Shown: positions 10,024 to 63,826 of the stretch, piece by piece | Numbering within the stretch: position 1 is the first letter of the stretch | How the letters are laid out: each line of letters starts with the position of its first letter | From: Zingiber officinale | Taxonomy: Eukaryota > Streptophyta > Magnoliopsida > Zingiberales > Zingiberaceae | Direction of reading: 5' to 3' | Length of the DNA: 64,000 nt | Assembly (NCBI RefSeq): GCF_018446385.1 | Contig: NC_056005.1 | Span: 45,575,461 to 45,639,460 of the forward strand | Notes under the pieces: generated by a model | Database searches by the model: none | Seen by the model: only the letters and a program-made list of their open reading frames with translations | What the model was told of the DNA's origin: nothing | Position numbers and translations under genes: made by a program

Positions 10024-11345
10024 TGTAGGATCGATGTGCTGGGGGGGGGAGGTGAATAACATTCGTGACTTTCACGTTCATTCTAAAATAACTTTGGAGA
10101 GACAAGCAGTAGTAGAATAAAGAAAAAAAAAATAAGACAATTGCAAACATGACCAAGATTTACTTGATTCAGAGCTTGTGGTGACTCCTACTCCAAGGCC
10201 TACACGTGAGAGTGATTTCGTTGGACAATCACTAATTAATCCAAAAAATTACAAATGTAATTACAAAGTGAATAAGTAACTTCAACAATAACAAAATGAT
10301 ACCGATGACTTGGAGAAATAGATATATAGTGTAGTCGTTGATGGAGCAGCTTTTGGGCTTTGTAGAGGTCTTTTTGAAGCAGCGCGCAGAAGCAGAAGTT
10401 ATTTGTATTGATGAATTGAAGCTGTTCATTGAAGCCTCCTTTTATAGCCACGTCCGGGCACCTGGATCCCCTCCCAGGTACCTGGACTGTGTTGACATAG
10501 TGAACTCTTGTCAAAACTTCATCTCTGAAGTTTATCCACGTCTGGGCGTTTGGATCCTTTTCGAGTGCTTAGACCATTGACGTGGGTTGGACACTCATTG
10601 CGCTCCAGCTCAGCAAGAAGATGAAATTTTGACCATCCGAGACTTGGAGCACCTCTAGGCGCTCGGATGGCCCAGGTGCCTGGCTAGTCACCTGCTTGGG
10701 GCTTCCTCTGTGATATGCATGTCTGAGGGCTTGGAGTAACTCTGGGCGCTCAGAACAACTTTTTTGCCAGCCTCTTCTATCTGTAAAATAAAATTAGTCC
10801 AAGCAAATAATATGTAAAGCATAAGTTTTGACAACCTCTGGACTATCCGATCCTGACTTTGAGTTTCATTGAAACTCTAGGTTGGACCGATGCCTATAGT
10901 TTCCTTTTCGGGGAATGCGCCCTCATCTACTCCTTTCAGGAGAGATTACCTTTTGCTAGACCATTCCTCCAAACCTTCTGGACTTTTGCTAGCATACAAT
11001 TCATCAAGACTTCATGCTGGATGTCCGATTCCCGACCCGTCTAGTCTTCCACCTGGTGTCCACGACCCCTAGGATTTTCACCTAGCGTCCTCAACTCTAG
11101 GATTTCACCCAACATCATTGACCTGACAATACTTTACCCAATCCCCTAAACTAGGACTTTGTTGCCTAACTGTAGTTAGGACTTTCCACCTGCTTAGTCT
11201 CAACTAGGACTTTCCTTTGCCTAAGATCATTTGGGACTTTTCTGCATACTCAGTTCAACTTGTTAGATAACAAGAAACCTTAACTTTGAACTCTTTGTCA
11301 TAATCAAAACTAAGGTTCGATCATCTGGTACTTTCTACACCAACA
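10024..11345 (-). repeat. 3' LTR of element E (left arm, 1.32 kb)
   Basis: Begins TGTAGG and ends CCAACA on the plus strand. It is matched by 62566-63826: both share the TCGTGACTTTCAC block, the ACTTTGGAGAGACAAG block, the GCCTCCTTTTATAGCC block and the AAACTCTAGGTT block. A section at about 10450-10770 has repeated GGGCGC(T/C) motifs. A CCTAGGATTT-type repeat begins at about 11067. The frames at 10236-10580 and 10859-11072 are inside it and are not genes. Confidence 0.88.
10438..10449 (-). promoter_or_regulatory. TATA box of element E LTR (minus strand)
   Basis: On the minus strand the sequence reads GGCTATAAAAGG. The same block is at about 62979 in the right LTR and in both LTRs of F, so it is a shared promoter core of these elements. 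Confidence 0.65.
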
Positions 11346-11362
11346 ATCTTCCTCTTTTCATT
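11346..11362 (-). other. Polypurine tract of element E
   Basis: Plus-strand ATCTTCCTCTTTTC follows the LTR terminus CCAACA. On the minus strand this is a purine run directly before the 3' LTR, confirming the minus orientation. Confidence 0.65.
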
Positions 11363-11369
11363 ATGATAA

Positions 11370-12414
11370 TAAAATTCAAAGTTTAGTAAGGTATAACAAA
11401 AAAAATGTTGCATAAGTATGGAAATTAAGCATAAATAAACCAATTTGGTGATTTAGTAAATTAAAGATGCTCCCCCTTAATTTAGTCCTCAATTATAAAA
11501 GATTATTAAGTTATGTTTGACTTAACTTTTAACCTTTCTCTCTCCCTTTGACATAAATAAAAAGAATACTATGTAGAGAGAAAATTAACTTGTAAAGATA
11601 GTAATTAAAAAAAACTAAGTTTTAATCTCTTTCAAAAAATTTAACTTTAAGCTCCCCCTAAACTCATCACTTTAACTTTCTTTTTAAAAAATTTAGCTTT
11701 AAAAAGAGTTTCAAACAAAAAACTTATCTTTAAAAGGAGTTTCTTTGCTAAATACTTAGCTTTGAAAATGATTTATTACTTAGCTTTGAAAAGAAATTCC
11801 TTATAAAAATACTTAGCTAAATTCATAGCTTTAAAAGATTTTTCTTAAAAACTTAACTTTAAAGAAGTACTTTATTTAAAAAGTTTAACTTACTTTTTGA
11901 AAAGTACTGACTATCCTTTTAAAAAATATGTAACTTTTTTTTTAAAAAAAAATTAACTTTGAAGAGTATTTTAAAAAAAAAAATTAACTTACTTCTGAAA
12001 AGTACTTACTCACTTTTTGAAAAATACTTTAACTTTACAAAACCTTAACTTTGAAGAAATACTTAAAAAAATAATTTACTTTATGAAAAGTACTTACTCT
12101 CTTTTTAAAAAATATTTAACTTTAAAAAAAGACTTAACTTTGAGGAAGTACTTTTAAAAAAATTTAAATTTAAAATTAAAAAAACTACTTTAACTTAAAA
12201 ATATATTTAACTTTGAAAATTTAAAAAAATACTTTAAATTCAAAAATTTGAATTTGAGATTTTGAAAAAAATACTTTAACTTTGAGAAAATATTTAGCTT
12301 AAAAAATATTTAACTTAACTTAACTCCTTTCACTCCCTCTTAATTAATGCCTTAAAAATTATTTTAAGTAAATTATTTAAGTTTGAGGGTCCTAGAGTGC
12401 AAGCATGAGAAACA
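11370..12414 (-). other. AT-rich non-coding internal region of E, left arm
   Basis: About 1 kb of extremely AT-rich sequence made of loose repeats of an ACTTAACTTTGAAAA type motif, without any open frame of note. F has the same kind of stretch at 48711-50100, in the place where a full SIRE element would carry pol. It ends at the target duplication AAACA (12410-12414) of element D. Confidence 0.75.
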
Positions 12415-12613
12415 TATTGGAACAATCCCAATGGTCAGTGTGATCATGTGTTTTGGTGTTTGGAAAAGGGTTTAAGTTAGGTTTACCCTTATATTTGATA
12501 TATGTATTTGAATTGTATAGGTTTGCAGGATACACATATGACTCAGCTTGATGGCTTCGGGTCCGGTGAAGGATGGAGCATCTGAGGGATCGAGGACAAG
12601 ACATCAAGGACAA

Positions 12614-12840
12614 GAGCCGAGGGAAGCACACTTTGAGGTATATGCCAAGGATGACATTGGGACGAGCCACGGGCTTGAATGCATCCGAGGGACGAGAGCT
12701 AAAGGAAGAAGACTTGAAGGCAAGAGCCGAGGGAATCGACTTTGAGGCATACTCGAAGGATGACATTAGGACGAGCCGTGGGCTTGGGTGCATCCGAGGG
12801 ATGAGAGCCAAAGGAAGTAGGCTTGAAGGTAAGAGATCAA
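12614..12840 (+). repeat. 110-bp tandem repeat in D LTR
   Basis: Two units and a bit. The same register occurs in the right LTR with units starting at 56368 and 56478, so the duplication predates the insertion. Confidence 0.8.
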
Positions 12841-13124
12841 AGCTGCAAGGAAGAGTCAAGTGAGTCGTAAGGGTGAGGGTCCGAGTGCCGAGGGACTATA
12901 CTTGGGGTACTAGTCGACTGATGGAAATGACAGTTGACTGGTACAGTCGATTAGGAGCGAACAGAATGCTTCTATTCACTCGGCCAGTGTGGAGCAGTCG
13001 ATTAGTACTTTCACCAGTCAAATGATATCGAGCCATTGGGTTGTAACAGTCGAATCTCCACAGAGGGCAGTCGACTGGTGGTTTCATTAGTTGATTGGTA
13101 GGTAGGATTTTCCAACCCATGGCA

Positions 13125-13131
13125 TATATAA
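13125..13131 (+). promoter_or_regulatory. TATA box of D LTR
   Basis: TATATAA in GGCATATATAACCAAGG. The right LTR keeps it at 56865-56871, both within GTATATAACCAAGGC-like context. Confidence 0.6.
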
Positions 13132-13544
13132 CCAAGGCTTGGAAGCTTAGTTAAGGTTGATGAAATAGAGGTGGTTAACCCTTATTAGTAGTCTACTAGC
13201 GCCCTACCTTCTCAAGAGTTCTTGTGAGAGTTGTGGTGAGGTTTCTCAACCCACAAGGAGCTACGTAAGCTAGCCGGAGGTCTTCCGGGGAGTAATCCAC
13301 CGACAGATAAGGATCGTCCACCTTACGGGCAGCTGTGGAGTAGGAGCCTTATCTCCGAACCACATAAATCGACAAGTAGCGGTTTGCTTTTTTTTGTCTT
13401 TATTATCTTTAGCTTTTATATTCATATTTGTATTGTTTTTGTATTATTCCGCTGTGCAACTAACAAATATGTAGAAAGCGATCATTTGTGGGGCGTCGTC
13501 TATCCAACCCCCCTTCAAGCTGGCCATACAAGATCTCTAACAAG

Positions 13545-13598: not shown

Positions 13599-14027
13599 AT
13601 GGTCGACTTGATAGCACCTCCAAAGTTTGAAGGAGGAAGCTTATGTGACATCATGTATTGGATAATGAAGATGGAAGTCTTCTTCAACACGGATTGAGAC
13701 ACTGTGATGGTGATCAAGGATCCATTCAAAGTCCCAAGAGACAAGAAAGGAAAAAGACTCCGACCAAGATATTTGACTGAGGAGCAACAATCATGATCAA
13801 AGGTAAATGATAAGGTAATATCTATTTTGATTGATATATTGCCTAGTGATATGATGAGCCGTGTAGGTGAATAAAAAAATGCCCATGAATTATGGAGCAA
13901 GATAAAGAAGGCTCCATGGGAAGAACCTCTGCCTACACAAGAAGAAGAAGAAGAAGAAAAATCTGAAGAAGAGCATGAAGTGGCTCAAATAGAGGAGGAG
14001 CAACCAGAAGATGTCGTATGTTCAACT
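13599..14027 (+). pseudogene. gag: Gag of element D, first part (split by element C)
   Basis: The ATG at 13599 opens APPKFEGG, then MYWIMKMEVFF, which is the W-X-X-X-M block of the small N-terminal gag domain in SIRE-like elements. The core that follows contains KNAHELWSKIKKAPWE, then an acidic linker rich in Glu. In-frame stops occur at 13695-13697, 13794-13796 and 13872-13874. The frame then runs open to 14027, where element C interrupts it after the TSD CAACT. It resumes in the same codon phase at 53858. The break by C and the stops make it non-functional as it stands. Confidence 0.82.
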
Positions 14028-15424
14028 TGTTGGTGCAATCATGCCCTAGAAGTTTCAATTTGTTGACAATTATTTAAGTTTAGGTTAATACGTTGGATCT
14101 AACATGTATTGTGAGTTTGCAAAAGAAGTTCTTGTAGGTCAGAAAACTGGATGTATAGCAAGAGAAGTCCAAGAAGGTCGAGGACCAGATTCTTGGCAAA
14201 AGAAGTTCTTGTAGGTCAGAAGACTGGATGTAAGGCAAGAGAAGTCCAAGAAGGGTGAGGACCAAATTCTTGGAAAGAGAAGCCCTTGCAGGTCAAAAGG
14301 CTAGATGCAAGGCAGGAAAGTCCAGGGGTATTTATTAAAAGAAATATATATTAATCCACTTGCTATTAATCGAGAAACCAACAATCGATTGGTAAATTGA
14401 TTGAGACGCATGGATATGAAACAGAGTATTCCTGGATCGATCAGCCGATCGATTGGAGTAAGCCAATCGATTGGTCGATCGATTGGAGAAACTTTACGCG
14501 AAACACAGAATGCTCCTGGATCGATCAACCGATCGATTGGAGTAAACCAATCGATCGACCGATTGATTGGTGAAACTTCTGCGCGAGGCACAGAACGCTC
14601 CTGGATTAATCAGCCGATCGATTGGAGTAAACCAATCAATCGACCGATCGATTGGTGAAGCTTCTGCGTGAAGCACAGAACACTCCTGGATTGATCAGCC
14701 AATCGATTGGAGGTATCCAATTGATCGACCAATCAATTCATAAAGGTTCTGCATTTTTATGCTGGAGCATAGCGCATCTGAATCGATTCGTTGATCAATT
14801 GATAAATTCAATCGATTGAGAATAATGTCCCAATCGATTGAGGTTCGAACCAAATAATCTACACTGTTGATCTTGACGTGATAGTGCTCAACGGATACTT
14901 TTGAATCAATTGAAAGACAAACACAATCGATTCACGACGATGATCATGTGAGAAACACCTATATTTGAAGACATTTAAAAAGCTGGAAAAGATGAAACGA
15001 AAGCTCTCACCAAAAAATACACTGTTCTATTGCTCTCAAGTGCTCAAGATCTCTCAAGTGCTCAAGTTCAAGCTCTCTTCTCCATATTTTCAAGTTGTAC
15101 TCTGCAAAGAAGAAGGTATTCTAAGTTTGTAATCATCCTCTTCTTCTTCCTTGTAGTGGTTGTGATCTTTTTCTTTTGGAGAGAGAGAGTTGTAAATCTT
15201 GTAAGGTTTCTCCACCTTCGGTGTAATTCTGAGTAGGAGAAGTTTTATAGTAGAAGAGTGATAGTGGTGTGGATCCTTAGACTAGTCACCTCCTTGAGGA
15301 GGTGGATACCAAGTAAATATAAGAGTTTGAATTGCTTTCAAGTTTCCGCTGTGCACAATCAAGTCAACAAAGAAAATGAAGTGACCCCAACCCCAGGGCC
15401 CCTTTAGCTCAACCGGTGCTAACA
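14028..15424 (+). repeat. 5' LTR of element C (1.40 kb)
   Basis: Starts TGTTGGTGCAATC and ends GTGCTAACA. It contains an 85-bp tandem array (14421-14758) and a pyrimidine-rich region at about 15030-15160, shared with 46980-47110 in the 3' LTR. Frames at 14301-14676 and 15030-15236 are LTR frames. Confidence 0.94.
14421..14758 (+). repeat. 85-bp tandem array of CGATCGATTGG dyads in C LTR
   Basis: Units begin with ACAGA at 14421, 14505, 14590 and 14675, spacing 84, 85 and 85. Each has two or three near-palindromes such as CCAATCGATCGACCGAT. The 3' LTR has three units, at 46484, 46539 and 46624, one of them shortened to 55 bases. It lies upstream of the likely promoter (U3). Confidence 0.9.
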
Positions 15425-15492: not shown

Positions 15493-17116
15493 ATGTCATT
15501 GAAAGAGGGACATAGTACTTCATGGCCACCATTCTATGAAGGCAACAACTTTACTTACTGGAAGAGCCGTATGGAGCACTACTCATGACCGAAATTGATA
15601 TATAGTTTTCAATCACAGAGGGATTCACAGAGCCAACCGAGAATGGAAAAATGCTTGAATCATCAAGGTGGACCGTTAAACACAAGATGAAGGCTCAAAC
15701 AAATGCTAAGGCGATTGTGACTCTTCAATGTGGGTTGAGCTCGGAGCAACTCAACAAGGTTGGATCTTTCAAGAGTGCCAAGGATTTATGGGATAAGCTC
15801 ATTGAGCTAAATGAAGGCACCCAACATTCAAGAATTGCAAAGAGAGATCTCTTAATAAATCAACTTCAGAATTTTACAATGAAGGATGGAGAAACGGTAA
15901 GTTCACTACATGAGAGATTCAAGGAACTCTTAAATGATCTCCATTCAGTTGGAGAGAGTGTGGAAAATCGAGATCTCATAAGGTATGCTCTAAAATCCTT
16001 CCCAAGAAATTCATTATTGTCATCCATGGTGGATGCCTATAAGGTTTCAAGGGATCTGTCAATAGTAGAATCAGATGAATTATTTTGTGAACTTGAATTG
16101 TATGAGCAAGCTAACACAATACACAAAGAGAAAGGTATAGCCTTGGTTGTAGATGAAAAGAGTAAAAAGAAGCACAAGGAAAAGAAGGAGTCATCTTCAG
16201 AATCTGAGCAAGACAATGATAGTGATAGTGATGAAGAGCTATCATCAAGTGAAATGACAAATTTTGTTCGAAGAATGATTAGACATTCAAAGAAGTTTGA
16301 CAAGAAGGATGTTAAAAAAATCTTCAATGATGACAAGAGAAAGGTAAATCTCTTATGGATTCAAAGACTAAGACTGATATAATTTGCTATGAATGCAAGA
16401 AAAAGGGGTACTACAAAATGTGTCCAAAATTAAAGAAGCAAGAAGAAAAGAATAAGAAAAAGAAGAAGGCTTTAAAAGCCACATGAGATGATTCATCCTT
16501 AAGCTCATCGGAAGAAGATGAAAGGAAGAGCTCAAGGCACATGACACTCATGGCCTTAAGCCATGTAGAAGATAGTGAAGATGAAGATAGTCATGGGGAG
16601 GATGTGGAATCTTCAAGTGAGTCATCATCTAGTGATGATGAGGTAATTTCTCCCAAGCTTGATAAGATGTATACCACCATTGCATGCTTAACTAATGCAC
16701 TATCTAAATCAAAAGGCAAGGTTAAAAAGTTGCAAAATGAATTGAAATTACTTAAGAATGAAATTGTGTCATGTGAAACTTGCATGCCTCATGAAAATGA
16801 CATGCATGAATTTGATGATCTTAAAAAGGAAAATGCATCTTTGAAATTACAAGTTGATGATCTTAGAGGTGTTTTAGAAAAGTTTACTTCAAGCTCTAAA
16901 TATTTGGGCATGATTCTAGGAGCTCAAAGGGGTGTGTACAATAAAGAGGGATTAGGGTTTAAATCACAACATAAGGAAATCAAATTCATGTCTCTAATTA
17001 GTAGAAATCATGCTTCAGGGGTTAAGGTTGTTCAAGCTTGGGTACCCAAGCAATTTGTTGTTAACGCTATCAGACCCAAAGTTTGGGTACTAAAACATTT
17101 GGTTTATCGTGTTTAA
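15493..17116 (+). pseudogene. gag: Gag of element C, frameshifted
   Basis: The ATG at 15493 begins MSLKEGHSTSWPPFYEGNN and YWKSRMEHY (small N-terminal WxxxM domain), and stops at 15586-15588. The core continues in another frame from about 15610 (FTEPTENGK) to 16382, with ANAKAIVTLQCGL-like NAKAIVTLQCGL, KDLWDKLIELNEGT and SMVDAYKV (UBN2-type gag). After a shift near 16344 comes a zinc knuckle, CYECKKKGYY, in which the His is Tyr and one spacer residue is lost. An acidic Ser/Glu tract follows, then a coiled coil (about 16680-16900, KKLQNELKLLKNEI), and VVQAWVPK just before the protease. Capsid role by family. At least two frameshifts and a stop at about 16484 disable it. Confidence 0.88.
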
Positions 17117-19481
17117 ACAGGCATGCGCCGAGGGGGAGCATCCAACCACATGGTTCGTAGATAGTGGATTCTCTAGGCACATGACGGGAGACTTTTCAAA
17201 ATTCTCATCATTAAGACACAGAAGTAAATGTACCGTTTCTTTTGGTAATAGTGGTGAATTAAAAGTTATGGTAATAGGAGATATTAGAATTTTTGAAAAA
17301 TTTGTGATAAAAAATGTGTTATTAGTGAAAGGCATGGTCTTTAATCTTCTAAGTGTTAGTCAACTATGTCATTCAGGTTATGGAGTTGAGTTTAACTCAT
17401 CTCAATGCTTAATCAAGCGTAGTGAACTAAACACCATTATCCTCATAGACCATAGAAAAGAAAATATTTATCAAGTTGAGTTATTTAGTGCTACTAATGT
17501 ATTTGCTAAGTGCCTCATGTCTAAAGAAGAGGAGACTTGGCTTTGGCACCGGATACTTGCTCACACCAACATGAGGAATATCAAAAGACTCTCGAAGAAA
17601 GAGCTGGTGCAAGGATTTCCAAAGTTAAAGTTTCAAAAAGATAAAATGTGTGATGCATGTCAACTGGGTAAGCAAACCAAAGCTACCTATAAAGGTAAAA
17701 ATGTTGTAAGTACCTCAAATGCTTTGGAGCTCATTCACATGGATTTGTTTGATAGTAGTAGATATATTTCTTTAAATGGTAGTAGGTATTGCTTTGTGAT
17801 TATGGATGATTATACTAGATATACATGGGTGTTCTTCTTGAAACATAAGGATCAAACTCTAGATACCTTGATTGCTTTTTGTAAAAGGGTAGAAAATGAA
17901 AAGAATCATAAGATAAATAAAATAAGAAGTGATCATGGAGGTGAATTTGAAAATGATAGATTCACAAGTTTTTGTATGGAAAAAGGTTATAAACATGATT
18001 TTTCCACCCCTAGGACTCCTCAACAAAATGGAGTTGTTGAGAAAAAAAATAGGGTTTTGCAAGAGGCTGCTAGGAGCATGTTAAATGAATATTCACTTCA
18101 TAGTTTCCTATGGGCCGAAGCAATTAATACGACTTGTTATGTACAAAATCGAACTTTATTACATAGGTTTCTAGGAAAAACACCTCATGAGTTGTGGTTT
18201 GGTAAACCACCTACAATTAAGCATCTTAGAGTATTTGGATGTAAGGTTTATATTCTAAACACCAAAGATTATTTGGGAAAATTCTCCACTAAGGCGGATG
18301 AGGGCATTCTTGTAGGTTACTCATAGCAAGGCGTATCGAATTTACAACAAAAGATCTAAAGTAGTAGAAGAATCATTAAATGTTGTATTTGAAGAAAATC
18401 CTTCTTTGAACCCTATAAGAACAAACGATGAAGAATTACAATTTGAGTTAGAGAAATTAACACTAAACGAAGGAAATAATCAAGGGGGAAAAATCCAAGA
18501 GAGTGATGGTGAGAAAATTGAAACTTTACCACTTGAACTCGAAATTGTAACAAATCAAGAATCAAGACCTACTAGGATTCATGTAAATCATCCCTTAGAT
18601 CAAGTAGTAGGAGACATCACTCAAGGAGTGAGAACTCGATCTTACTTTAGAAATGAAAGAAGTCAAGTAGCCCTAATCTCTCAAACAGAGCCAAAAACCA
18701 TTGATGATGCCTTGTTTGATCCGGATTGGATTTTAGCAATGCAAGATGAACTATCTCAATTTGAGAGAAGTCAAGTTTGGGATTTAGTTCTTAGGCCTAC
18801 CAACAAATCAATTATTGATATAAAATGAGTCTTTAGAAACAAACTTGATGATAAGGGGATGGTTGTGAGAAATAAAGCTAGATTAGTTGCTAGGGGTTTC
18901 AATCAAATAGAAGGGTTAGATTATGATGAAACTTATGCACCCGTAGTAAGATTGGAGTCTATTAGAATGATGTTGGCCTTTGCCACTCACAAGAGGTTCA
19001 AGTTGTACCAGATGGATGTAAAATCAGCATTTTTAAATGGTGTTCTAAAAGAAGAGGTGTATGTTTAGTAACCATTGGGGTTTGAAAATTTAGAGTATCC
19101 AAATCATGTATATAAACTTAAAAATGCCTTATATGGGCTAAAACAAGCTCTCCGAGCTTGATATGAACGATTATCAACATTTCTAGTATCAAAAGAATTT
19201 CATAGAGGAAAAATTGATCCCACATTATTCTTGAAAAATAGTGGTAATAATATATTTGTGGCCCAAGTATATGTAGATGACATTATTTGTGGTTCCACAA
19301 ATAAAGATTTTTTAAATGACTTCATTAATCACATGGAGAGTGAGTTTGAAATGAGTTTGTTTGGCGAGTTGGCATTTTTCCTAGGTTTACAAATTAAGCA
19401 AACCAAAGAAGGAATTTACATTCATCAATCTAAATATGCCAAATAGCTATTTAAGAAATTTGGAATGGAAAATGCAAAAGA
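17109..19481 (+). pseudogene. pol: Pol of element C, protease to RT (before solo LTR insertion)
   Basis: Protease FVDSG at about 17155. Integrase finger WHRILAH with CDAC (about 17540-17660). DDE core with HMDLF (about 17737), MDDYTRYTW (about 17803) and the Glu of NGVVEKKN (about 18028). The 405-residue frame ends at 18326 and pol resumes after a shift. RT blocks: [16 protein letters not shown] (about 18921), [10 protein letters not shown] (about 19014) and YVDDII (about 19270). Stops: 18826-18828, 19066-19068, 19159-19161 and 19444-19446. The reading frame of RT to RNase H is interrupted by the solo LTR after GMENAKD and rejoins in phase at 21447. Confidence 0.92.
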
Positions 19482-21441
19482 TGTTGGGTTTTTCGGGCCA
19501 CAAAAACCGTTTTTCCGCGTCGCGGAAACCCCGAAAGCCCCATGCCACTGGATCCGTGCGAAGAGTATAGAACAAAAATTTACATGTACGAGTTTATTAA
19601 CTAGATCTACACTTAGATCTACATGTTTAGAAAGTTACCCTTGTTGCGTGCCCTTTGCAAATCCCGCTCGTCCAAGGTATGCCGGATCTCGAGTGTGTTC
19701 AAATGTACACACCTCTAGTAGTATCCACACGAACAAGAAGTGTTCTCTAACACTCAAGGATGGAGAAGAGAACACCACAAGTGTGCTAGCACTTCTTGAT
19801 GCTCTCGGATAGAATTGGAAGATGAAGAAAGGAAAAGAAGAGAACACACTCCTCTACAAACTCTATGTGACTTTCACTAACCTTTCTTCTTGGATTAGAT
19901 TCACTCTCCTTTCTTCTCCCTTGATTGAAACTCATGACCAAGAGAAGATAAAGAGCAACAAGAGAGCTTGAGAAAGAAGATGATGTCAATGTGAGTGAAT
20001 GAAAAATTCATTCTCATTCAAAACCAAAAAGGTAACCCCCATTCTCATTAAATGTGACCATTAAAGAGAATAGATTTGTAACCCCCATGAGGTGGCACAC
20101 TTTGATGATGTGGCACATCATCATTAGTCCTCCTAATGCCAAATCACTAATGATGTGGCAAATAGTCAAGTTAAACTTGACTCTTCCTCTTCCTCTCAAG
20201 TCAAGTCAAACTTGACTTAATCTCTCTCATGGTTGATCTAATCCAATCATTTAATCCAAGCCAATTTAATATAATGAATCTAATTCATTTAATTAAATTG
20301 ATTCAATGAGTCATAATCTAAATTAGACTCATTGAACACATGAATTAACTTGAGTCCAACTCAATTAGCCCAATTAGGATTACTCTTAATCCAATTTGAT
20401 TCATCACATGAATCTAATCCTCTTGGTTCATCATATGAACCTAATCTCCATCCATTTGTTCTTTGTGTGTGACCCAATAGGTTCTTGTAACGTTGGCAAT
20501 ACTCCTAAACCCATTTAGGACCATAAGTAATGAGCGGTATCTAGCAATACATCATTACTACCCAAGTTACAAGAATGTTGAGATCCAACATCACCTTGTG
20601 ACTACTAATTGTGACTTCTCACAATATATGACAAGTGTTCTTCTATCCAAGACATCTAGATTGATCAATGTGAGGCATAGACCGTGTCATCCTCTAATCA
20701 ATCTAAATCTTGAACTCCAAGTAGACTCACTCAATCAAATGAGCTCAATATCTCATATTGACTCATTTGGGCATGGCCATGCACTTCGTGGTCTCACTCT
20801 ATCAAGAATATCGATGTCACTCCCGTCATATAGGAGGGATAGATATCATCTACATCACTCACATCCCTTCGCATAATTTGTTACATACCCAGTAATCGCC
20901 TTTATAGTCCACCCAGTTACGGGTGACGTTTGACGAAACTAAAGTACATAACTCCTTATGTAGGGAATCATGGTGACTTCAGATCTAAGGACTAGTAGTC
21001 ATACTAATAGCCACATGAGAAAGTATATGACACTCATATAACGATCCATGATACTTTCTCATGGCGGATCATTCAGTATACATTCTCTAATGCATACCCA
21101 TGTGTCAACTTGATATCTCTATATCCATGACTTGTGAGATCAAGTCATCGAGTTAACCTACATGCTAGTCTTATTGCATTAACATTGTCCCTGAATGTTA
21201 ATACTCGACTAGGAATGATTAAGAGTAGTGTTCCCTATATCATCTCACTATCGATTCAACCAATCGATTGATATAGGTAAGAACTTTTCTACTCAAGGAC
21301 GTTATTATACTTAGTTTATTTGGCACCAATACAAGTAAGTATAATAACCAAAAATCAAATGTCTTTATTTATATATAGAATATGATACAACAAGTCCATA
21401 ATACAATCATCAAATGATTGGCTCTAGGGCTCTAGCTAACA
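19482..21441 (-). mobile_element. Solo LTR of an Angela-type copia element, in RT of element C
   Basis: The plus strand starts TGTTGGG and ends CTAGCTAACA. It is the inverted relative of the LTR of element A: both carry the TCGCGGAAACCCCGAA block at one end and the GGCTCTAGGGCTCTA block at the other. It is 1.96 kb with no internal sequence. The target duplication AAAGA is perfect (19477-19481 and 21442-21446). It is about 150 bp longer than the LTR of A, mainly around 19690-19990. It most likely arose by LTR-LTR recombination. Frames at 19465-19812, 20014-20199 and 20493-20876 belong to it and are not genes. Confidence 0.95.
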
Positions 21442-21446
21442 AAAGA

Positions 21447-24005: not shown

Positions 24006-24021
24006 CCCGAATTTCCCCCTC

Positions 24022-44227: not shown

Positions 44228-44292
44228 TGCACGACATTGCATTCTTTGCATTGTGTTATCTGTGGCCTTATGCATTTTTTTTCCCTCCTCAG

Positions 44293-52170: not shown

Positions 52171-52407
52171 CTAGCATGAAAAACGAGAAAGAAGCGTGTC
52201 CCAGGACTTGATTCTGGATTAGTAGTGCGGTTTAAAAAGAAAATACTACGTGATCTCAAGTGGTGTTGCACCAACTTTGAGACAAATTTGATTACGAACA
52301 AAAACTGGATTGGAAGACTGGATACCGGTTCCAATCGACTTCGAAAAATTGAAAAGCACAACGAAGATGTGCTTGACTGGTGGTTACACCAAATCGAAGT
52401 GATCTCT

Positions 52408-52418
52408 CTCTGATACCA
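52408..52418 (-). other. Primer-binding site of element F
   Basis: Plus-strand CTCTGATACCA is the complement of the Met-type site and lies two bases from the LTR at 52421. Confidence 0.88.
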
Positions 52419-52420
52419 AT

Positions 52421-53794: not shown

Positions 53795-53799
53795 AGCCA

Positions 53800-53852
53800 T
53801 TCACCCCCCCCCCTCCCCCTCCCCACCTCCTCTAGCTCAACCGGTCCTAACA
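53800..53852 (+). repeat. 3' LTR of element C, last 53 bases
   Basis: Runs from TTCACCC through a C-rich stretch to AGCTCAACCGGTCCTAACA, matching 15390-15424 of the 5' LTR. Followed by the target duplication CAACT. Confidence 0.92.
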
Positions 53853-53857
53853 CAACT

Positions 53858-55035
53858 TCTGAGGAGGAGAAGGATGAAGAAATGCCATCCACAAGTGTAG
53901 ATGAGGAAACAACCTCAAAGGTTGAAGGAGAATCCAAGACAAGTGAAGAAGAAGAAGTCTTGGAAGTCAATCTAGTGAGCATCTCAACTGAAGTGAAGTC
54001 AAAGGACCATGTCATTTGCTTCGGGTGCAATGAGAAGGGACACTAATAGGGTAGGTGTCCGTTGGGTAAGAAGAAGGTAACTTCTAAACTCATTTAAGTT
54101 AATTTAAATACTAACAAGGGTTGTAGGAATGAAGAAACCTAAGGAAGGAGATTGCGCATCATATGCGTCACATGTGGGGAGAAGGGTCACTACCACACTA
54201 AATGCCCCAAGAAGCAGGAGATCAAGAAGCTTGCACATTTGAAGCAGTGGGAAGAGAAGAAGAGAAGCAAAAGTCAAGGGGGAGCTTCAAGGGTAAGGGA
54301 GGTATACCCTAACTTGAATTGCAATTATAATTCTTATACTCCCATGCATGCTAGAAATAATTATCATTATTTACCCATGAAAAATTTTAGATTTAGATAT
54401 CATGATAGGAATAGGGTAAATGTTAGAGATACCCCCCTAGGCGACCTATGCATGATAAATCTAGAAATGGTAGACCTAAGGAGAATCTAGGTAAAAATCC
54501 CAAGAAGGGAAGACATATGTCTAGAAAAATGGGTAGGTCTAGGAATGCCCAATGTGGACATGTCTATTTTAGGTTTAGGAACCTAGAAAGGGAAAATCAA
54601 GCTTTGAAGGAAAAGCTTGATAGTTTGGAGAAAACCCTAGCTAGATTCACGATTGGATCTAGAGGGTTAAGTATGGTGTTGGATAGCCAAAGACCCAACA
54701 ATGATAGATCGGGTTTGAGATACTGATCTAGTGTCTCCAAGGCTAAGGGAAAGTCTTATGCTAGGGTTGCATATGACTATAGCAAGGAGAAATCAATAAA
54801 TGGTAAGGGAAAGTCATTTAATGGCAAGAAGAAATTAACCAAGGACAAAGTGTCCAAGGTTAAAAAGGTTAGGTTTGTAGGCCAAGTGTCACCAAAGGTG
54901 CACCGATGTGACCTAGAAATTGTGGATGAGTCACCTAGGGATGTGGCTAAAGTTAAGAGCTCTAGAGGGAGATCTAAGAGTCAATTTGGGACCCATGACA
55001 AATGGATCTCAAGTGGGTTTTACTTGAGAGTCTAG
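53858..55035 (+). pseudogene. gag: Gag of element D, second part
   Basis: Continues the D gag in phase from SEEEKDEEM. There are two zinc knuckles: CFGCNEKGH at about 54018-54045, cut by TAA TAG, and CVTCGEKGHYHTKCP at about 54161-54205. Basic and Asn/Tyr-rich sequence follows to 54490. After a shift, the 54448-54726 frame has a coiled coil (LERENQALKEKLDSLEKTLA) and GSRGLSMVLDSQRP. The last piece (54850-55035) is Lys-rich and ends FGTHDKWISSGFYLRV. Order and content match the C-terminal gag of SIRE elements. No protease follows. Confidence 0.8.
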
Positions 55036-56172: not shown

Positions 56173-57265
56173 TGTTGAAGCAATCCCAATGGTCCATGCG
56201 ACCATGTGTTTTGGTGTTTGGGTAAAGGGTTTAAGTTAGGTTCACCCTTATATATGTGTATTTGAGTTGTGCAAGTTTGCAGGATACACATATGACTCAA
56301 CTTGATGGCTTTCGGTCTAGTGAAGGATGGAGCATCTGAGGGACCATGGACAAAGCAGTAAGGACAAGAGCCGAGGGAAGCGCACTTCGAGGCATACACG
56401 AAGGATGACATTGGGACGAGTTGCGGGCTTGAATGCATCCGAGGGACAAGAGCCAAAGGAAGAAGGCTTGAAGGCAAGAGTTGAGGGAAATGACTTTGAG
56501 GCATACGCGAAGGATGACATTGGGATGAGCCGCGGTCTTGGGTGCATCTGAGGGACAAGAGCCAAAGGAAATAGGCTTGAAGGCAAGAGGTCAAAGCTGT
56601 AAGGAAGAGTCAAGTGAGTCGTAAGGGTGAGGGTCTAAGTGTTGAGAGACTATACTTGGGTACCAGTCGACTGATGGAAATGACAGTCAACTGGGAGCGA
56701 ACAGAATGCTTCTATTTGCTCGGCTATTGTGGAGTAATCGACTAGTACTTTCACCAGTCTATTGGTATCGAGTCATTGGGTTGTAACGGTCGAATCTCCA
56801 CAGAGGGAAGTTGACTGGTGGTTTCATCAGTCGACTAGTAGGCGGGGCTTTCCAACCCGTGGTGTATATAACCAAGGCTTGAAAGCTTGGTTAAGGTTGA
56901 CGAAATAGAGGTGGTTAACCCCTATTAGTAGTCTACCAGTGCTCTAGCTTCTCAAGAGTTCTTGTGAGAGTTGTGATGTAGTTTCTCCACCCACAAGGAG
57001 CTATGTAAGCCATGGATAGCCATTGACGGATAGGGATTGTCCACCTTACGGATAACCATGGAGTAGGAGCCTTATTTCCGAACCACGTAAATCAGCGTGT
57101 AGTGGTTTGCTTATTCTTGTCTTTATTGTCTTTAGCTTTTATATTCATATTCATATTTGTTTTTGTATTATTTCGTTGTGCAACTAACGAATACGTAGGA
57201 AGCGATCATTTTGGAGCGTCGTCTATCCAACCCCCCTTCTAGCCGGCCATAAAAGATCTCCAACA
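56173..57265 (+). repeat. 3' LTR of element D (1.09 kb)
   Basis: Matches 12415-13542: 110-bp units at 56368 and 56478, GTCGACTGG dyads, TATATAA at 56865-56871, terminus CTCCAACA. It is shorter by about 35 bases. Frames at 56157-56613 are repeat frames. Confidence 0.93.
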
Positions 57266-57270
57266 AAACA

Positions 57271-58140: not shown

Positions 58141-58660
58141 TGAAAATAGTCTTTTTATTGGCTCCCCCTGGATCATAGCCTCGATAAGGTCTATCAAATT
58201 AATGAATTTGATCCTTAGAAATCCAATATTGATTAAGTCCAACTTGATTAATCAAGTTGGATTTAGGAACTCATGCTTGGACTAGTTTTCTATTTGGTCG
58301 ATTCACTAAGGATAAGTATGATTGAATTTGTGTTTTGCCTTATATCCGAGTCCGGCTTGATTGTATATGACTCTTTGTTTTCCAAGGATCAAATCAAGAT
58401 TCTTGGAACCCAAAGTGAACTATTCCAACGAGTCCCTAAGTTCCTTAACTTGGCTTTTCAAGTTGAAATTTTTTTCCTCAAGTTATTGGATTTGAGTTGA
58501 AGTTTCAACTTGAATAGATTCGGTCAAGGAGCTTGGGTTAGTCACTTCCTTAAGGGATATTACCTCCTTTTGGAGTGACTTGATCTAGATGTTGGATTTT
58601 TCCAGTTTTCTAGACAAGTAAGAAACTAAATTCTATAATCTAATTATTGATGTACTTACA
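58141..58660 (-). pseudogene. gag: Gag C-terminal remnant of element E
   Basis: On the minus strand, broken frames correspond to the coiled-coil and pre-protease region of F. The nucleotide block TTGGCTCCCCCTGGATCATAG (first 20 bases at 58159) matches F at about 50989, and CATGCTTGGACTA matches the VQAWVPK site. Several stops and shifts. Confidence 0.68.
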
Positions 58661-59437
58661 GTGGAATCATCTTCTGAGCCGGATTCCGATTATATTCAGC
58701 TTCGGTTCAAGACTTGGACTCAGTTTCAAAAACATCAACTTGTACTGGTAGAGCATGGAAGCTCGCTTGCTCATGTTCTTCATCGGAGTCTTTCGAGGAT
58801 TCAGACCATGTTGCTTTCAAAGCCTTCCGTCTTCTTTGCTTCTAATTTGGACATTTCGGCTTGTAGTGTCCCTTCTTGTTGCAGCTATAGCAGGTAACTT
58901 CAGACTTGTCCTTCGTGTTCGATTGAGCCATCTTCTTGATTCTCATTTGGTGAAGCCCTTCTTCTTCTTGTATAGTTTTCGTACCAGTTTCATGAGCTTG
59001 GCGGTGATTTCATTATCAGGCTTGGTTTTTGGTTCCCTCATTTTGGTTGTACCTGCAACCAAAGAAATACCTTTCTCAATTGGCAGTGCATTAGTCTATT
59101 TGTGAAGTTCAAATTCAGAAAACAACTCATCTAATTTAATTAGGGAAAGGTTCTTAGATACCTTGTAGGCATCTACCATTGATTCCCACAATGTATCCAC
59201 AGAAAAGTATTTAGCGCGTACCTAAGGACATCACGGTTCTTTACTTTTTGTCTGATCGCGTGGATGCCATTCAGTAAACTTGGATGCAAACGTGTAACTA
59301 GCTTGCCAACTTACCTTCCTTGATTTTAATGTTATACAATTTATTAAGAATTAAATCTCCCATAATTCTTTTACGCTTGAAAAAGGGCTAACTCAGTTCA
59401 ATTCTTTTTTGATTAGGTCGCATTAGAGAGTACATAT
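58661..59437 (-). pseudogene. gag: Gag core and zinc knuckle of element E
   Basis: Minus-strand pieces in order: VSPFSSVKELWE, SMVDAYKVSKNLSLI, DELFSEFELHK, GISLVAGTTK, RKLYKKKKGF, then a zinc knuckle CYSCNKKGHYKPKCP (about 58845-58890; the frame is continuous over the finger), and an acidic end. It has the middle gag section that F lacks. Stops include ones near 59420 and 59375. Its N-terminal part lies at 62057-62278 beyond the solo LTR. Confidence 0.75.
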
Positions 59438-62051
59438 TGTTGGTTGCTACTCGGAAAACCTAGAGGTTCCACTGTACAAAAATTTTGTACAAAGGTCTGA
59501 ACCTTTTCCTAGCTACCATGTGTTCTTTTAAATTAAATTTTGGATCGCCTGCGGAACTTAACACGTTTGATCCAAAACTTAATCTATTTGTTCTTTTAGG
59601 TTTTGACTTGGATCTCCTGTGGAACTTAACACGTTTGATCCAAATCACCTAAGTTATTAATTCCATTAAATATTAATTTCCAAAATTGGTTCCCAGTACT
59701 GACGTGGCGAGGTACATGACCTTCTTGGATATGGGAGCAACCACCACCGACTAGACAAAACCTTTTAAGGAAAGCTAATATTTAATTTCCTAAAATAACT
59801 TTAGGTCAACCAAAAAGAACAATCAAATCACAAGGAAAAGAAAAACAAAAGAACACTATATCGAAAACAAATTCGAAACACTAGAATCATATGCCTCTTG
59901 AATTTAGTATTATTTCTAAAAATAACTAGTATGATGCGGAAAGAAAAATTACTAGTTATACCTTTTAGAAAGACCTCTTGATCTTCTACCGTATTCCTCT
60001 TCTAACCTCGGACGTTGTGTGGGCAACGATCTTCCGAGATGAGAACCACCTAGGCACCTTATTCCTTCTTCCTTCAAGTTTCGGCCAAGCACAAGAACTT
60101 TCAAAGGATGAAGAATTTTCCACCAACCAAGCTCCAAGGGATGCATGCTTTCTCTCCTTCTTCTCCTTCCTTGATCCGGCCACATCCTCCAAGCTCCAAG
60201 AGATGATAGATTTCGGCCACAACAAGAGGAGAGAAGAGAAAGGGAAGGGCCGGCCACCACACCAAGGAAAAGAGGGAGAAAAATAGAATAGAGTCCTTAG
60301 CCTTGAAGCCTCCTCTACCCCCTCTTTTATAATCCTTGGTCTTGGCAAATAAGGAAAATTTAATAAAAACTTCCTTAATTCTTTTTCCATTGAAAAGGAA
60401 AATTTATTTAATTAAAATAATTTTCTCTTTTCAAATTACAATGGCCGGCCATAACAAATAAAATCTCCAAGCAAATAAAATTTTAAACACCAATTAAAAC
60501 TTCCTTATTTGCTTCCGGAAATTTATAAAAATTTCTCCAATAATTTTTATCCCTTCATGATTGGTTTATAAAAAGGAAATTTAATAAATTAAAATCTTTC
60601 TTTTAAACTTGTGGATAAAAAAAAAGTTATCTCATCTTTTGTAGAAGAGAATATTTAATTTTAAACTCTCTTTTAAATCATGAACATGATTAAAAAGGAA
60701 ATTTTTCTTAAAATTTAAAATCCTCCTTTAATCAACAAATAAGGAAAGATTTCAAATTTTAAACTCTCTTTTAAACATGTAGATGATTTACAAATAAGAA
60801 AAGTTTTTACCAAAAATTAAAAAACATCCTTTTAAACTACAAATAAGGAAAGAGATTAATCTCTTCTCTTAATCTTTTGTAGAAAGCTATAAAAGGAAAT
60901 TTTTAATTTTTAAACTATCTTTTTAAAATCATGATATCCACATAAGAAATAATTTTAATAAAAATCCTTTTAAATATTCTAGTGGGCGGCCACCCAAGCT
61001 TGGGACCCAAGCTTTGGCCGGCCACCTACATGGCTCATCCACTTGGTCTTGGCCGACCCTAGCTTGGGTTCCAAGCTAGCTTGGCCGGCCCCATTGGATG
61101 GGTAAGAAGGTGGGTATGCGATGGGTATAAATCTCTATATACTAGAGGCTACGATAGGGACCGAGAGGAGGAATTGGTTTTGGTCTCCTGATAAAATTAA
61201 GCATCCCGTGTTCTCCCCGAACACACAACTTAATTTTATCAATAATAATTCATTCCACTAAAGAACTATTATTGAACTACCGCACCAATCCCAAATTACA
61301 TTTTGGACTCCTTCTTATTATGAGTGTGTTAGTCTCCCTGTGTTTAAGATAACAAATATCCACTAATTAAGTAAGTTACTGACAACTCACTTAATTAATA
61401 TTTAGCTCCAAGAGTAGTACCACTCAACTTCATCGTCATGTCGGACTAAGTCCACCTGCAGGGTTTAACATGACAATCCTTATGAGCTCCTCTTGGGGGC
61501 ATTCTCAACCTAGATCACTAGGACACAGTTTCCTTCTATAATTAACAACACACACTATAAGTGATATCATTTCCCAACTTATCGGGCTTATTGATTTATC
61601 GAACTAAATCTCACCCATTGATAAATTAAAGAAATAAATATCAAATATATGTGATTGTTATTATATTAGGATTAAGAGCACACACTTCCATAATAACTGA
61701 GATCTTTGTTCCTTCATTAAGTCAGTATAAAAGGAACGACCTCAAATGGTCCTACTCAATACACTCTTAGTGTACTAGTGTAATTATATAGTTAAGATAA
61801 ACTAACACCTAATTACACTACGACCTTCCAATGGTTTGTTCCTTTCCATCATGGTCGTGAGCTACTGTTTATAATTTATAAGCTACTGATAACATGATCT
61901 TCTATGTGTGACACCACACACCATGTTATCTACAATATAAATTAACTGAACAACTACATTTATCATAAATGTAGACATTTGACCAATGTGATTCTTATTT
62001 CTAGATAAATGTTTTATACCAAAAGCTAGGCTTTTAGTATACATCCTAACA
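59438..62051 (-). mobile_element. Solo LTR, 2.6 kb, Angela-type copia, in gag of E
   Basis: Termini TGTTGG and CCTAACA; perfect target duplication CATAT (59433-59437 and 62052-62056). On the minus strand it begins TGTTAGGATGTATACTAAAA, a layout I associate with long-LTR copia elements of the Angela type (inference from memory, not compared). It includes GGCCGGCC runs (about 60250, 61015 and 61080) and a minus-strand TATATAG (about 61134-61142). There is no primer site, coding frame or second LTR. Frames at 59952-60390 are on both strands of LTR sequence and are not genes. Confidence 0.9.
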
Positions 62052-62056
62052 CATAT

Positions 62057-62278
62057 CGCTTTAGCATCTGCCTCGATCTTCCTTTTTGTTGGTGTGTCCC
62101 ACTTGTCGTAGGGGATGAGTACTCCATTTTCGGTGGGAAATGTGAATTCGGTTTGGATTATGATCCATATTTTCACTTGTGTCTTCAAGTGGTACTCTAT
62201 CCATCGTTTTTAGTATCTGAAGTTATTGCTAGAGAAAAGGGACTAGCATGTGGTATTGTAACATTCTTGATGGGTCAT
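62057..62278 (-). pseudogene. gag: Gag N-terminal part of element E
   Basis: The minus-strand ATG at 62278 opens MTHQECYN; a TAG and a TAA follow. Then RWIEYHLKTQVKIWIIIQ, EFTFPTENG and RKIEADAKAI, matching MEAYLHTHFEVWMIV and RKVEANAKA in F. It is joined in phase to 59437 once the solo LTR and one CATAT are ignored. Confidence 0.8.
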
Positions 62279-62552
62279 TTTATTGTAGATCTTACAATGA
62301 TAAAAACAATGAAACTTGTTCCAATACTTATTCTTGGATTAGTAGTGTGATATAAATGAGAAAAGGCAACAAAGTGATTTGACTGGTGTTGCACCAATTT
62401 TGAGAAAAACTTTGAAGAATCGACAAATTTGTCAAGAGAGGTTATTAGACCAATTTTGTCTTATGGTAAAAATTTAAAAATGGAAAAAAATGGATGAAAA
62501 GCAATGATAAAGAATGCTCGAATAGTAGTTGTACCGATTCAAATTGGCCTCA
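62279..62552 (-). other. Leader of element E
   Basis: Untranslated stretch between primer site and gag. The block CACTACTAATCCA(A/G)AATAAG is shared with F at about 52190-52230. Confidence 0.65.
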
Positions 62553-62563
62553 CTCTGATATCA
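62553..62563 (-). other. Primer-binding site of element E
   Basis: Plus-strand CTCTGATATCA, one base from the complement of the Met-type site, two bases before the LTR at 62566. Confidence 0.8.
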
Positions 62564-62565
62564 AT

Positions 62566-63826
62566 TGTAGGATAGTTGCGCTAGAGAGGGGGTAAATAAC
62601 TCTCGTGACTTTCACATTAATTTTTAAAAAACTTTGGAGAGACAAGTGGCAGCGAAATAACGAAAAGAAAAAAAAAAGAAAATGCTAGCATGACCAAGAT
62701 TTACTTGGTTTAGAGCCTGTGGTAACTCCTACATCAAGACCCGCATATGAGAGTGCTTTCGTTAGGCAATCACTAATCAATCTAGAAAGTTACAAATATA
62801 ATTATAAAGTGAATAAGTAACTTCAACAATAACAAAATGATACCAACAACTTAAAGAATCAGATTTGTAGTGTAGTTTTCGTTGGAGCAGCTTTTGGGTA
62901 TCATAGAGGTCTTTTCGAAGTAGTGCGCAAAAGCGGAAGTTGTTTGGTTGATGTATTGAAGTTGCTGGTTGAAGCCTCCTTTTATAGCCTCGTTCGAATA
63001 CCTGGATTGTGCTGACGTGGCAAACTCTCGTCGAAGCTTTATCCCTGAAGTCTATCCATGCCCGGGCGCCTTGACCCTCTTTGGGCCTCTGGACAACTGA
63101 CGTGGGTCAGCCACTCGTCATGCTCCAGCTCAGCCAAAAGATGAAGTTTTGGTCGTCCGGGCGCCTAGAGCACATCTGGGTGCCCGGACTGCCCGGGTGC
63201 ATAGCTATGCACACACCTAGGGCTTCCTTTACGATGAGGCCTATCCGGGGGCCCAAAGCAACTCCAGGCGGCCAAAGTTTGGGCGCCTAGACTAACCGTT
63301 TTGCCAGCCTCTTTTTCCTACAAAATAAAGTTAGTTTAGGCAAATAATATGTAAAGCATAAGTTTTGACAGCCTCCAGACTATTCCGTCCTGACTTTAAG
63401 TTTCATTGAAACTCTAGGTTAGACCGACACCTATAATTTCCTTTTTGGGGAATGTGTCCTCACCTACTCCTCTCAGGAGAAATTATCTTTTGCCAGACCG
63501 GTCCCCCAGACTATCTGAGTCATCAGGACTTCATGTTGGACGTTCAACCCTCGACTAGTCTAGTCTTCCATTAGTGTCCGCGACCCCTAGGATTTTCACA
63601 TAGCGTCATCAACTCTATGATTTCACCCAACGTCCTTGACCCGCTAAGACTTTGCCCAGTCCCCTGAACCAGGACTTTGTTGTCTAATCACAGCTAGGAC
63701 TTTCCACCTGCTTATTCTTAAGTAGGACTTTCCTTTTCCTAAGATCACTTATGATTTCCTACACACTAAATTCAACTTATTAGATAATAAGAAAACTTAA
63801 TTTTGAATACTTTACCATAATTAAAA
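62566..63826 (-). repeat. 5' LTR of element E, right arm, end missing
   Basis: Matches the left LTR from TGTAGGATAG to CATAATTAAAA. The last about 45 bases expected (to CCAACA) are replaced from about 63827 by unrelated AT-rich DNA, so the LTR is truncated or interrupted. The minus-strand TATA GGCTATAAAAGG is at about 62979. The frame at 63081-63290 is in LTR sequence with GGGCGCC repeats. Confidence 0.85.

What the first reader, a model, noticed from the sequence alone, without database searches (positions are those of the whole stretch)
10024..63826. Five-level nest of LTR elements with target duplications at each nested junction
E contains D, D contains C, C contains the Athila-type element, and that contains the triple-LTR element. 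Side branches are the solo LTR and F in C, and a solo LTR in E. Five-base duplications are visible: AAACA, CAACT, AAAGA, TGCAT/TGCAC (one mismatch), TGCTC, AGCCA and CATAT. Removing each insertion restores a gag or pol frame, or a known block order. Relative ages follow by order alone, without a molecular clock.
Basis: seen in the sequence. Interest (0 to 1): 0.75.

Follow-up and report, generated by a model that had tools for sequence, protein, structure and literature searches.

The report
Five-deep nest of plant retrotransposons
A stretch of DNA, probably from a ginger-family plant, holds five retrotransposons inserted one inside another like Russian dolls, and the junctions and relative ages fit that history; such nesting is ordinary in large plant genomes.

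Summary
E contains D, D contains C, C contains an Athila-type element, which contains a three-LTR element; two solo LTRs and F are side insertions. Six of seven target duplications match 5/5, one 4/5.

Hosts were not rebuilt; flanks were placed separately on relatives. Continuity is base-exact for the three-LTR element in Athila gag (18 of 21 relatives reaching both flanks) and for E's solo LTR, and within 7 bp for D in E. C in D and Athila in C show order only.

LTR divergence falls inward: E 0.246, D 0.143, C 0.106, Athila 0.083, triple 0.044-0.055. Four of five dated host/guest pairs fit; F in C (0.121 vs 0.106) is reversed, not significantly.

The nest is probably deeper. E's left flank aligns to the start of a triple-family LTR lying in a decayed gag; the right flank is outside the window. 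Within the nest, pol was found only in C.

Nested and tandem LTR elements are well known in plants: a clean new example, not a new phenomenon.

The parts
10024..11345 (-). E, left LTR (element on minus strand)
   Evidence: LTR pair with 62566-63826; K2P 0.246; end read
62566..63826 (-). E, right LTR, lacking about the last 36 bp (no target duplication visible)
   Evidence: primer motif on minus strand at 62552, 2 mismatches
12410..12414 (.). target duplication AAACA, left of D
12415..13542 (+). D, left LTR
   Evidence: K2P 0.143
56173..57265 (+). D, right LTR (PPT motif at 56161, second at 55737)
57266..57270 (.). target duplication AAACA, right of D
14023..14027 (.). target duplication CAACT, left of C
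14028..15424 (+). C, left LTR
   Evidence: K2P 0.106 against the right LTR part before F
15493..19476 (+). C: copia gag (PF14223), gag C-terminal piece, Pol_BBD, gag_pre-integrs, integrase core, first half of reverse transcriptase
   Evidence: Pfam on separate open pieces; tblastn to the left copia element
19477..21446 (-). solo LTR (19482-21441) with target duplication AAAGA on both sides, inside C pol
   Evidence: related to LTR 5942-7752; pol pieces either side map in frame to the left copia element
21447..22177 (+). C: rest of RT and RNase H-position pieces
23324..23328 (.). target duplication TGCAT, left of Athila
23329..25071 (+). Athila-type element, left LTR
   Evidence: K2P 0.083; tRNA-Asp-type primer motif at 25078
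25484..26206 (+). Athila gag, first part (PF03732)
26202..26206 (.). target duplication TGCTC, left of three-LTR element
26207..37404 (-). three-LTR tandem: LTR 26207-29264, internal 29265-30275, LTR 30276-33332, internal 33333-34339, LTR 34340-37404; no coding domain found in the three open pieces scanned
   Evidence: primer motifs on minus strand at 30258 and 34322
37405..37409 (.). target duplication TGCTC, right of three-LTR element
37410..38739 (+). Athila gag second part and weak protease match
   Evidence: 18 of 21 relatives in exact register
40117..40863 (+). ATHILA ORF-1 family open frame (PF03078)
42481..44227 (+). Athila-type element, right LTR
44228..44232 (.). target duplication TGCAC (one mismatch), right of Athila
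44407..45000 (+). C: ORF in the env position (PF20167 match below Pfam cut-off; 3 relatives found, best from ginger)
46069..47358 (+). C, right LTR, part before F (with target duplication AGCCA 47354-47358)
47359..53794 (-). F: LTRs 47359-48687 and 52421-53794, gag-like ORF 51553-52170, no pol found; inserted in C's right LTR
   Evidence: K2P 0.121
53795..53857 (+). duplication AGCCA (53795-53799), last 53 bp of C's right LTR, duplication CAACT (53853-53857)
54143..54723 (+). D gag remnants (zinc knuckle below cut-off; piece related to C's gag)
58142..59437 (-). E gag, C-terminal pieces up to the solo LTR
59433..62056 (.). solo LTR in E (59438-62051) with target duplication CATAT on both sides
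   Evidence: exact gag register, offset 2619
62057..62278 (-). E gag, N-terminal piece
9588..10023 (+). [not shown]
8911..9587 (+). Y: motif shared with F's LTR (8911-8988), degenerate primer motif (9116, 2 mismatches), decayed copia gag (9362-9562), interrupted by Z (inferred seventh level)
   Evidence: Pfam found nothing in 9362-9532

Best explanation
This is a stack of independent retrotransposon integrations at one site. Each element arrived as a cDNA and was joined by integrase to a 5-bp staggered cut, duplicating 5 bp of the host element (duplications and register shown; the integrase step is established knowledge, recalled). The order was E, then D in E, C in D, Athila in C between pol and the env-position ORF, and the three-LTR element in Athila's gag. 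F went into C's right LTR. Two further elements landed in C's pol and E's gag and were reduced to solo LTRs, presumably by LTR-LTR recombination (inferred). The three-LTR element behaves as one insertion: one outer target duplication, a primer motif in each internal copy, similar divergence among LTRs and between internals. It was inserted as a tandem, or made by unequal crossover early after insertion. Pol was found only in C, so E, D, F and the triple, and perhaps Athila, were probably mobilised by proteins from other copies (inferred).
For: Nested LTR pairs. Seven duplications; chance per 5/5 site 0.00136. Triple in Athila gag: flanks mapped separately to natural relatives; 120 of 120 hit the left flank, 21 hit both, and 18 of those 21 give the offset 11203 set by the duplication (one of the 18, P0162, also gives 11194). 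Solo LTR in E: residue 37 of C's gag piece falls at 62056 and at 59437, offset 2619, the duplication offset. D in E: E's left flank alone, in five query lengths, ends at F 50026; E's right flank alone (one length, 57271-57600) starts at F 50025, as. Solo LTR in C: RT-piece residue 98 at 19477 and residue 121 at 21493, in frame and 18 nt short. F in C: the right LTR resumes with the same end as the left LTR. K2P order E .246 > D .143 > C .106 > Athila .083 > triple .044-.055, kept after removing CG/CHG sites and gap edges.
Against: F is nominally more diverged than its host C (0.121 vs 0.106, z -1.05). D>C and C>Athila are only z 2.25 and 1.85, falling to 1.78 and 1.38 without CG/CHG sites. Transversion fractions put C below Athila. 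C in D shows gag collinearity only, about 170 bp apart in length (my arithmetic). All three env-position relatives map only to the right of Athila, so that junction is untested by register. Three of 21 relatives miss the exact offset at the triple junction, and 99 of 120 did not reach the right flank. One target duplication has a mismatch. A first local placement of E's left flank on F ended about 260 bp short (F 49748). No other haplotype or empty site was examined.
Confidence: 0.94

Rival explanations
1. The stack is partly an assembly artefact or came from segmental rearrangement rather than stepwise insertion.
For: Repeat-dense DNA is prone to misassembly (general knowledge); one duplication has a mismatch and E's right end is incomplete.
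Against: Target duplications at all seven inner insertions and host continuity that is base-exact at two and within 7 bp at a third would not arise from random joins; divergences differ by layer in the expected order.
Confidence: 0.03
2. The three-LTR element arose by unequal crossover between LTRs some time after a normal two-LTR insertion, rather than being inserted as a tandem.
For: LTR1-LTR2 (0.044) and internal1-internal2 (0.040) are a little closer than either LTR is to LTR3 (0.055); LTR3 has 94 unique sites against 64 and 64, two-sided p 0.021 for 94 vs 64. By my arithmetic this fits a unit copied after 19-27% of the element's life.
Against: Differences are small, the internals could evolve at another rate, and the left/right switch expected of a crossover inside LTR2 is not evident along six segments. 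PMC11899658 (abstract and two sections read) favours single insertion in rice but leaves both routes open.
Confidence: 0.4
3. The nest ends at E, and the similarity of 9588-10022 to a triple-family LTR and of 9362-9562 to gag is neighbouring repeat debris.
For: No right-hand counterpart is in the window: 63827-64000 scores 149-150 against shuffle maxima of 173-191. The tail 9746-10022 alone scores 187-205 against shuffle maxima of 202-212. Pfam found no family in 9362-9532, and 2-mismatch primer motifs also occur elsewhere, e.g. 8151.
Against: The left stretch as a whole starts at LTR position 1 with TG at 9588 (two of three LTR copies; position 8 for the third) and runs to position 458-464 just before E, score 474-501 against shuffle maxima of 249-271, 274 for the wrong strand and 240 for the Athila LTR.
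Confidence: 0.35

Closest known systems
Nested LTR retrotransposons of plant intergenic DNA (adh1 locus of maize, SanMiguel et al. 1996, cited in PMC1560396, passages; 4126 nested/original pairs in PMC7251063, abstract and passages)
   Same: Younger elements in older ones, 5-bp duplications, LTR divergence mostly falling inward; some reversed pairs (1042 of 4126 in PMC7251063; here 1 of 5).
   Different: Deeper than the three-layer maize region described in PMC1560396; different host, probably Zingiberaceae.
Tandem LTR-retrotransposons sharing an internal LTR (PMC11899658, abstract and two sections)
   Same: LTR-internal-LTR-internal-LTR, one outer target duplication, none inside, high identity between internals and among LTRs.
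   Different: 3.06-kb LTRs with only 1.0 kb internal sequence and no coding domain found; about 4-5% LTR divergence.
Sirevirus Ty1/copia elements (PMC2829016, passages)
   Same: C, D and F show two PPT-motif copies near the 3' LTR (45846/46057, 55737/56161, 48868/48691); C has gag, copia pol domain order and an ORF in the env position.
   Different: Pol was not found in D, E or F; the paper gives about four PPTs per linker, I counted two with my own motif; lineage not tested by a tree.
TR-GAG elements (PMC8704663, passages)
   Same: F and E, and probably D: LTRs, primer motif, gag only, no pol found.
   Different: Gag is decayed or interrupted here; mobility not shown.

Membership tests
Nested LTR-retrotransposon insertion | Inner element bounded by LTR ends and a 5-bp duplication of host sequence | tested here: met
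   Seven of seven inner insertions (D, C, Athila, triple, F, two solo LTRs), one with a mismatch; E's own duplication is not visible
Nested LTR-retrotransposon insertion | Host sequence continues across the insertion | tested here: met
   Exact at two, within 7 bp at one, in frame at one, LTR-continuous at one, collinear or block order only at two
Nested LTR-retrotransposon insertion | Host older than guest by LTR divergence | tested here: met
   4 of 5 dated pairs in order; C/F reversed, z -1.05
Tandem LTR-retrotransposon (three LTRs) | Alternating LTR and internal copies with a single outer target duplication and none inside | tested here: met
   (inner boundaries read by eye)
Sirevirus (element C) | Ty1/copia domain order gag-PR-IN-RT-RH | tested here: met
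   (RT and RH pieces by match to the left copia element)
Sirevirus (element C) | Multiple PPT copies upstream of 3' LTR | tested here: met
   45846 and 46057; criterion from PMC2829016 (passages, which also note one extra PPT in some Athila-group elements)
Sirevirus (element C) | env-like ORF in the linker (present in some members) | tested here: inconclusive
   ORF 44407-45000, PF20167 E 1.6e-6 but below cut-off
Sirevirus (element C) | Placement in the Sirevirus clade of RT trees | not tested
   no labelled reference set built
Athila (Ty3/gypsy) | tRNA-Asp-type primer site and ATHILA ORF-1 family protein | tested here: met
   12 of 12 at 25078 (motif recalled); PF03078 E 6.3e-15
Athila (Ty3/gypsy) | Recognisable reverse transcriptase and integrase | tested here: not met
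   No RT or IN in 25484-26065, 37873-38739, 40117-40863, 40782-41372 or in 10 of the 15 open pieces of 40 aa or more listed for 38740-42481. So: Athila-type, apparently pol-less, not shown to be a complete Athila
TR-GAG (E, F, D) | LTRs and gag without pol | tested here: met
   129 copia pol queries: none hits D or E at E<=0.01; the one hit in F lies in gag
TR-GAG (E, F, D) | A single intact gag ORF | tested here: inconclusive
   F keeps a 206-aa stop-to-stop ORF; gag of E and D is in pieces

The most novel reading that the evidence does not exclude
The nest is at least seven layers deep: Y (a decayed Sirevirus-like element) holds Z (a relative of the innermost three-LTR family), Z holds E, and E holds the four further layers. 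One family would thus occupy both an outer and the innermost layer, and most layers would be pol-less elements moved by proteins from other copies.
Probability: 0.55. Interest if true: 0.35.

Novelty: new member of a known kind. Interest (0 to 1): 0.22.

Why it matters
Nesting gives an order of events without a clock, so a five-layer stack is a compact test of LTR dating: here the clock agrees along the main chain and is ambiguous for one side branch. It also shows how a probable Zingiberaceae genome piles apparently pol-less elements into one site; in ginger, LTR elements were reported as 56.6% of the genome (PMC8342452, passages). It changes no accepted view.

Tried and rejected
Scans of viral contigs with C's integrase piece and Athila's gag piece each matched 4 stretches, none confirmed. 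The tRNA scan and the Rfam scan (gathering threshold) were empty. The 3 env-position relatives did not reach left of Athila. A first blastn placement of E's left flank on F was blurred by AT-rich repeats (best stretch ended at F 49748); end-to-end placement resolved it, where of three planned right-flank lengths only the first ran. A crossover switch inside the middle LTR of the triple was looked for and is not evident. Considered and rejected: that the three LTRs are two independent insertions (no inner duplications seen). The 168-aa ORF in the triple's LTRs has no Pfam match and was not pursued. Paper searches returned nothing.
Full report
WHAT IS THERE. Comparing the 64-kb window with itself gives LTR pairs whose coordinates enclose one another. 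From outside in: E (LTRs 10024-11345 and 62566-63826), D (12415-13542 and 56173-57265), C (14028-15424 and 46069-53852, the latter split by F), an Athila-type element (23329-25071 and 42481-44227), and an element with three LTRs and two internal copies (26207-37404). Side insertions are a solo LTR in C (19482-21441), F in C's right LTR (47359-53794) and a solo LTR in E (59438-62051). E, F and the three-LTR element run on the minus strand, by tRNA-Met-type primer motifs (motif recalled; 0-2 mismatches).

TARGET DUPLICATIONS. Random TG/CA boundary pairs match 5/5 in 0.00136 and at least 4/5 in 0.019 of 200,000 draws. CATAT is weaker on its own, since 61 equal-pentamer TG...CA pairs exist in that stretch; register proves it instead. 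E's own duplication is not visible: its right LTR stops matching about 36 bp before the end.

HOST CONTINUITY WITHOUT REBUILDING HOSTS. I placed the left and right flank of each insertion separately on relatives. (1) Triple in Athila gag: 136 relatives of the gag piece were found and the 120 listed ones used; 120 of 120 hit the left flank, 21 hit both, and 18 of those 21 give the offset of 11203 that the duplication predicts (P0162 also gives 11194); P0147, P0154 and P0202 do not. (2) Solo LTR in E: residue 37 of C's gag piece falls at 62056 and at 59437 on the minus strand, offset 2619, the duplication offset. (3) D in E: E's left flank, in five query lengths, ends at F 50026, each above the best of 10 base shuffles (for example 1763 against 1079); its right flank (one length) starts at F 50025, as did the best local match. 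With the 5-bp duplication counted, this is within 7 bp. (4) Solo LTR in C: residue 98 of the left copia element's RT piece at 19477 and residue 121 at 21493, in frame with an 18-nt length difference. (5) F in C: C's right LTR resumes at 53800 and ends as the left LTR does. (6) C in D: gag pieces lie in order on the two sides (C gag 3-65 at 13713-13904, E 0.010; C gag part two 108-158 at 54571-54723, E 4e-6), about 170 bp different in length by my arithmetic; not base-exact. (7) Athila in C: pol pieces to 22177, then Athila, then an ORF with a PF20167 match below cut-off; its three relatives map only to the right side, so this is block order alone.

AGES. K2P between LTRs: E 0.246 (SE 0.017), D 0.143 (0.013), C 0.106 (0.010), F 0.121 (0.011), Athila 0.083 (0.007), triple 0.044, 0.055 and 0.055 (0.004 each), internals 0.040 (0.007) (the ends used there differ by at most 8 bp from those listed above). 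z for host minus guest: E/D 4.80, D/C 2.25, C/Athila 1.85, Athila/triple 3.31 (LTR1-LTR3), C/F -1.05; without CG/CHG sites and gap edges 4.36, 1.78, 1.38, 1.94 and -0.43. So 4 of 5 dated pairs are in order and one is reversed, not significantly. Transversion fraction alone puts C (0.0161) under Athila (0.0195). PMC7251063 (abstract and passages) reports reversal in 1042 of 4126 nested pairs, so one reversal in five is unremarkable. With 1.3e-8 per site per year, the rate used for ginger in PMC8342452 (passages), my arithmetic gives about 9.5 (E), 5.5 (D), 4.1 (C), 4.7 (F), 3.2 (Athila) and 1.7-2.1 (triple) million years. These are illustrative only, since most changes are transitions.

THE THREE-LTR ELEMENT. 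LTR and internal copies alternate, a primer motif lies at the end of each internal copy, and only the outer ends carry a duplication. Divergences are nearly equal, with LTR3 slightly apart: 94 unique sites against 64 and 64, two-sided p 0.021 for 94 against 64. By arithmetic this places the tandem at insertion or within roughly the first quarter of its life. PMC11899658 (abstract and two sections) shows such tandems are common in plants and leaves insertion and recombination both open.

WHAT THE ELEMENTS ARE. C has copia gag, PR-region and IN and RT and RH pieces. C, D and F each carry two PPT-motif copies; [quoted passage not shown] E did not match my exact PPT motif. Of 129 pol queries (120 relatives of C's integrase piece and 9 window pieces), none hits D, E, Y, Athila or the triple at E<=0.01, and the single hit in F lies in gag. 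These queries are copia; for Athila the test is Pfam, which found gag and weak protease matches but no RT or IN in the pieces scanned (10 of the 15 open pieces of 38740-42481, 37410-37872 not scanned). E, F and probably D resemble TR-GAG elements; PMC8704663 (passages) reports that one such element transposed in an Arabidopsis ddm1 mutant.

HOST PLANT. Of the listed relatives of the Athila gag piece with at least 70% identity, the 9 that carry a name are all Zingiber officinale (for example P0125 80%, P0203 86%); one unnamed one has 90%; Curcuma longa appears at 56%. The best relative of the env-position ORF is also from ginger, 63%. Against: among the 120 listed relatives of C's integrase piece (of 2129) the names shown are other plants (Trifolium, Dendrobium, Linum and others), none from ginger. 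A Zingiberaceae host is therefore an inference.

PROBABLY DEEPER THAN FIVE. The 435 bases 9588-10022, left of E, align to positions 1-464 of the triple-family LTR (score 495; maximum of 30 two-base-block shuffles 249; wrong-strand control 274; Athila LTR control 240); against the other two copies the scores are 501 (from LTR position 8) and 474 (from position 1). That LTR begins inside a decayed copia gag (9362-9562: match to a D piece E 7.9e-7; F gag E 0.005 and C gag E 0.024), preceded by a degenerate primer motif at 9116 (2 mismatches) and an 80-column motif shared with F's LTR (76%). So E probably sits in Z, and Z in Y. Against: the tail 9746-10022 alone does not clearly beat shuffles, 63827-64000 does not match, Pfam found nothing in 9362-9532, and a 2-mismatch primer motif also occurs at 8151.

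VERDICT. Real, correctly interpreted and well supported; ordinary in kind. Literature searches made. None listed a paper on this locus, but no search named it and the library omits most subscription journals.

Noticed in passing
window 1-7752: A copia element with gag, PR/IN and RT pieces (open frames 1965-5921) and LTRs about 1-519 (cut by the window start) and 5942-7752; LTR identity 95.2% over 518 columns. The solo LTR in C belongs to the same LTR family (92% over 1284 columns; 85.8% over the whole aligned length).
   Followed up: partly
window 9588-10023: Start of an LTR related to the three-LTR family, interrupted by E: a likely sixth layer.
   Followed up: partly
window 8911-9587: Decayed Sirevirus-like LTR end, primer motif and gag: a likely seventh layer.
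   Followed up: partly
window 59662-59791, 57898-58019, 50724-50845: About 127 bp inside the solo LTR in E is 74-76% identical to internal sequence of E and F; origin unexplained.
   Followed up: no
window 53795-53852: F sits 53 bp from the end of C's LTR beside a long poly-C run, which resembles the C-rich integrase signal reported near Sirevirus LTR ends (PMC2829016, passages).
   Followed up: no
window 28530-29033 and 32596-33099 (minus): A 168-aa open frame kept in two of the three LTRs of the triple element and split in the third; no Pfam match.
   Followed up: no
window 63827-64000: After E's right LTR breaks off there is AT-rich sequence with a 26-bp self-complementary stretch at 63838-63863, 92%.
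   Followed up: no
window 51553-52170: F's gag appears to lack several hundred bases of middle sequence relative to C and E (inferred from match positions).
   Followed up: no
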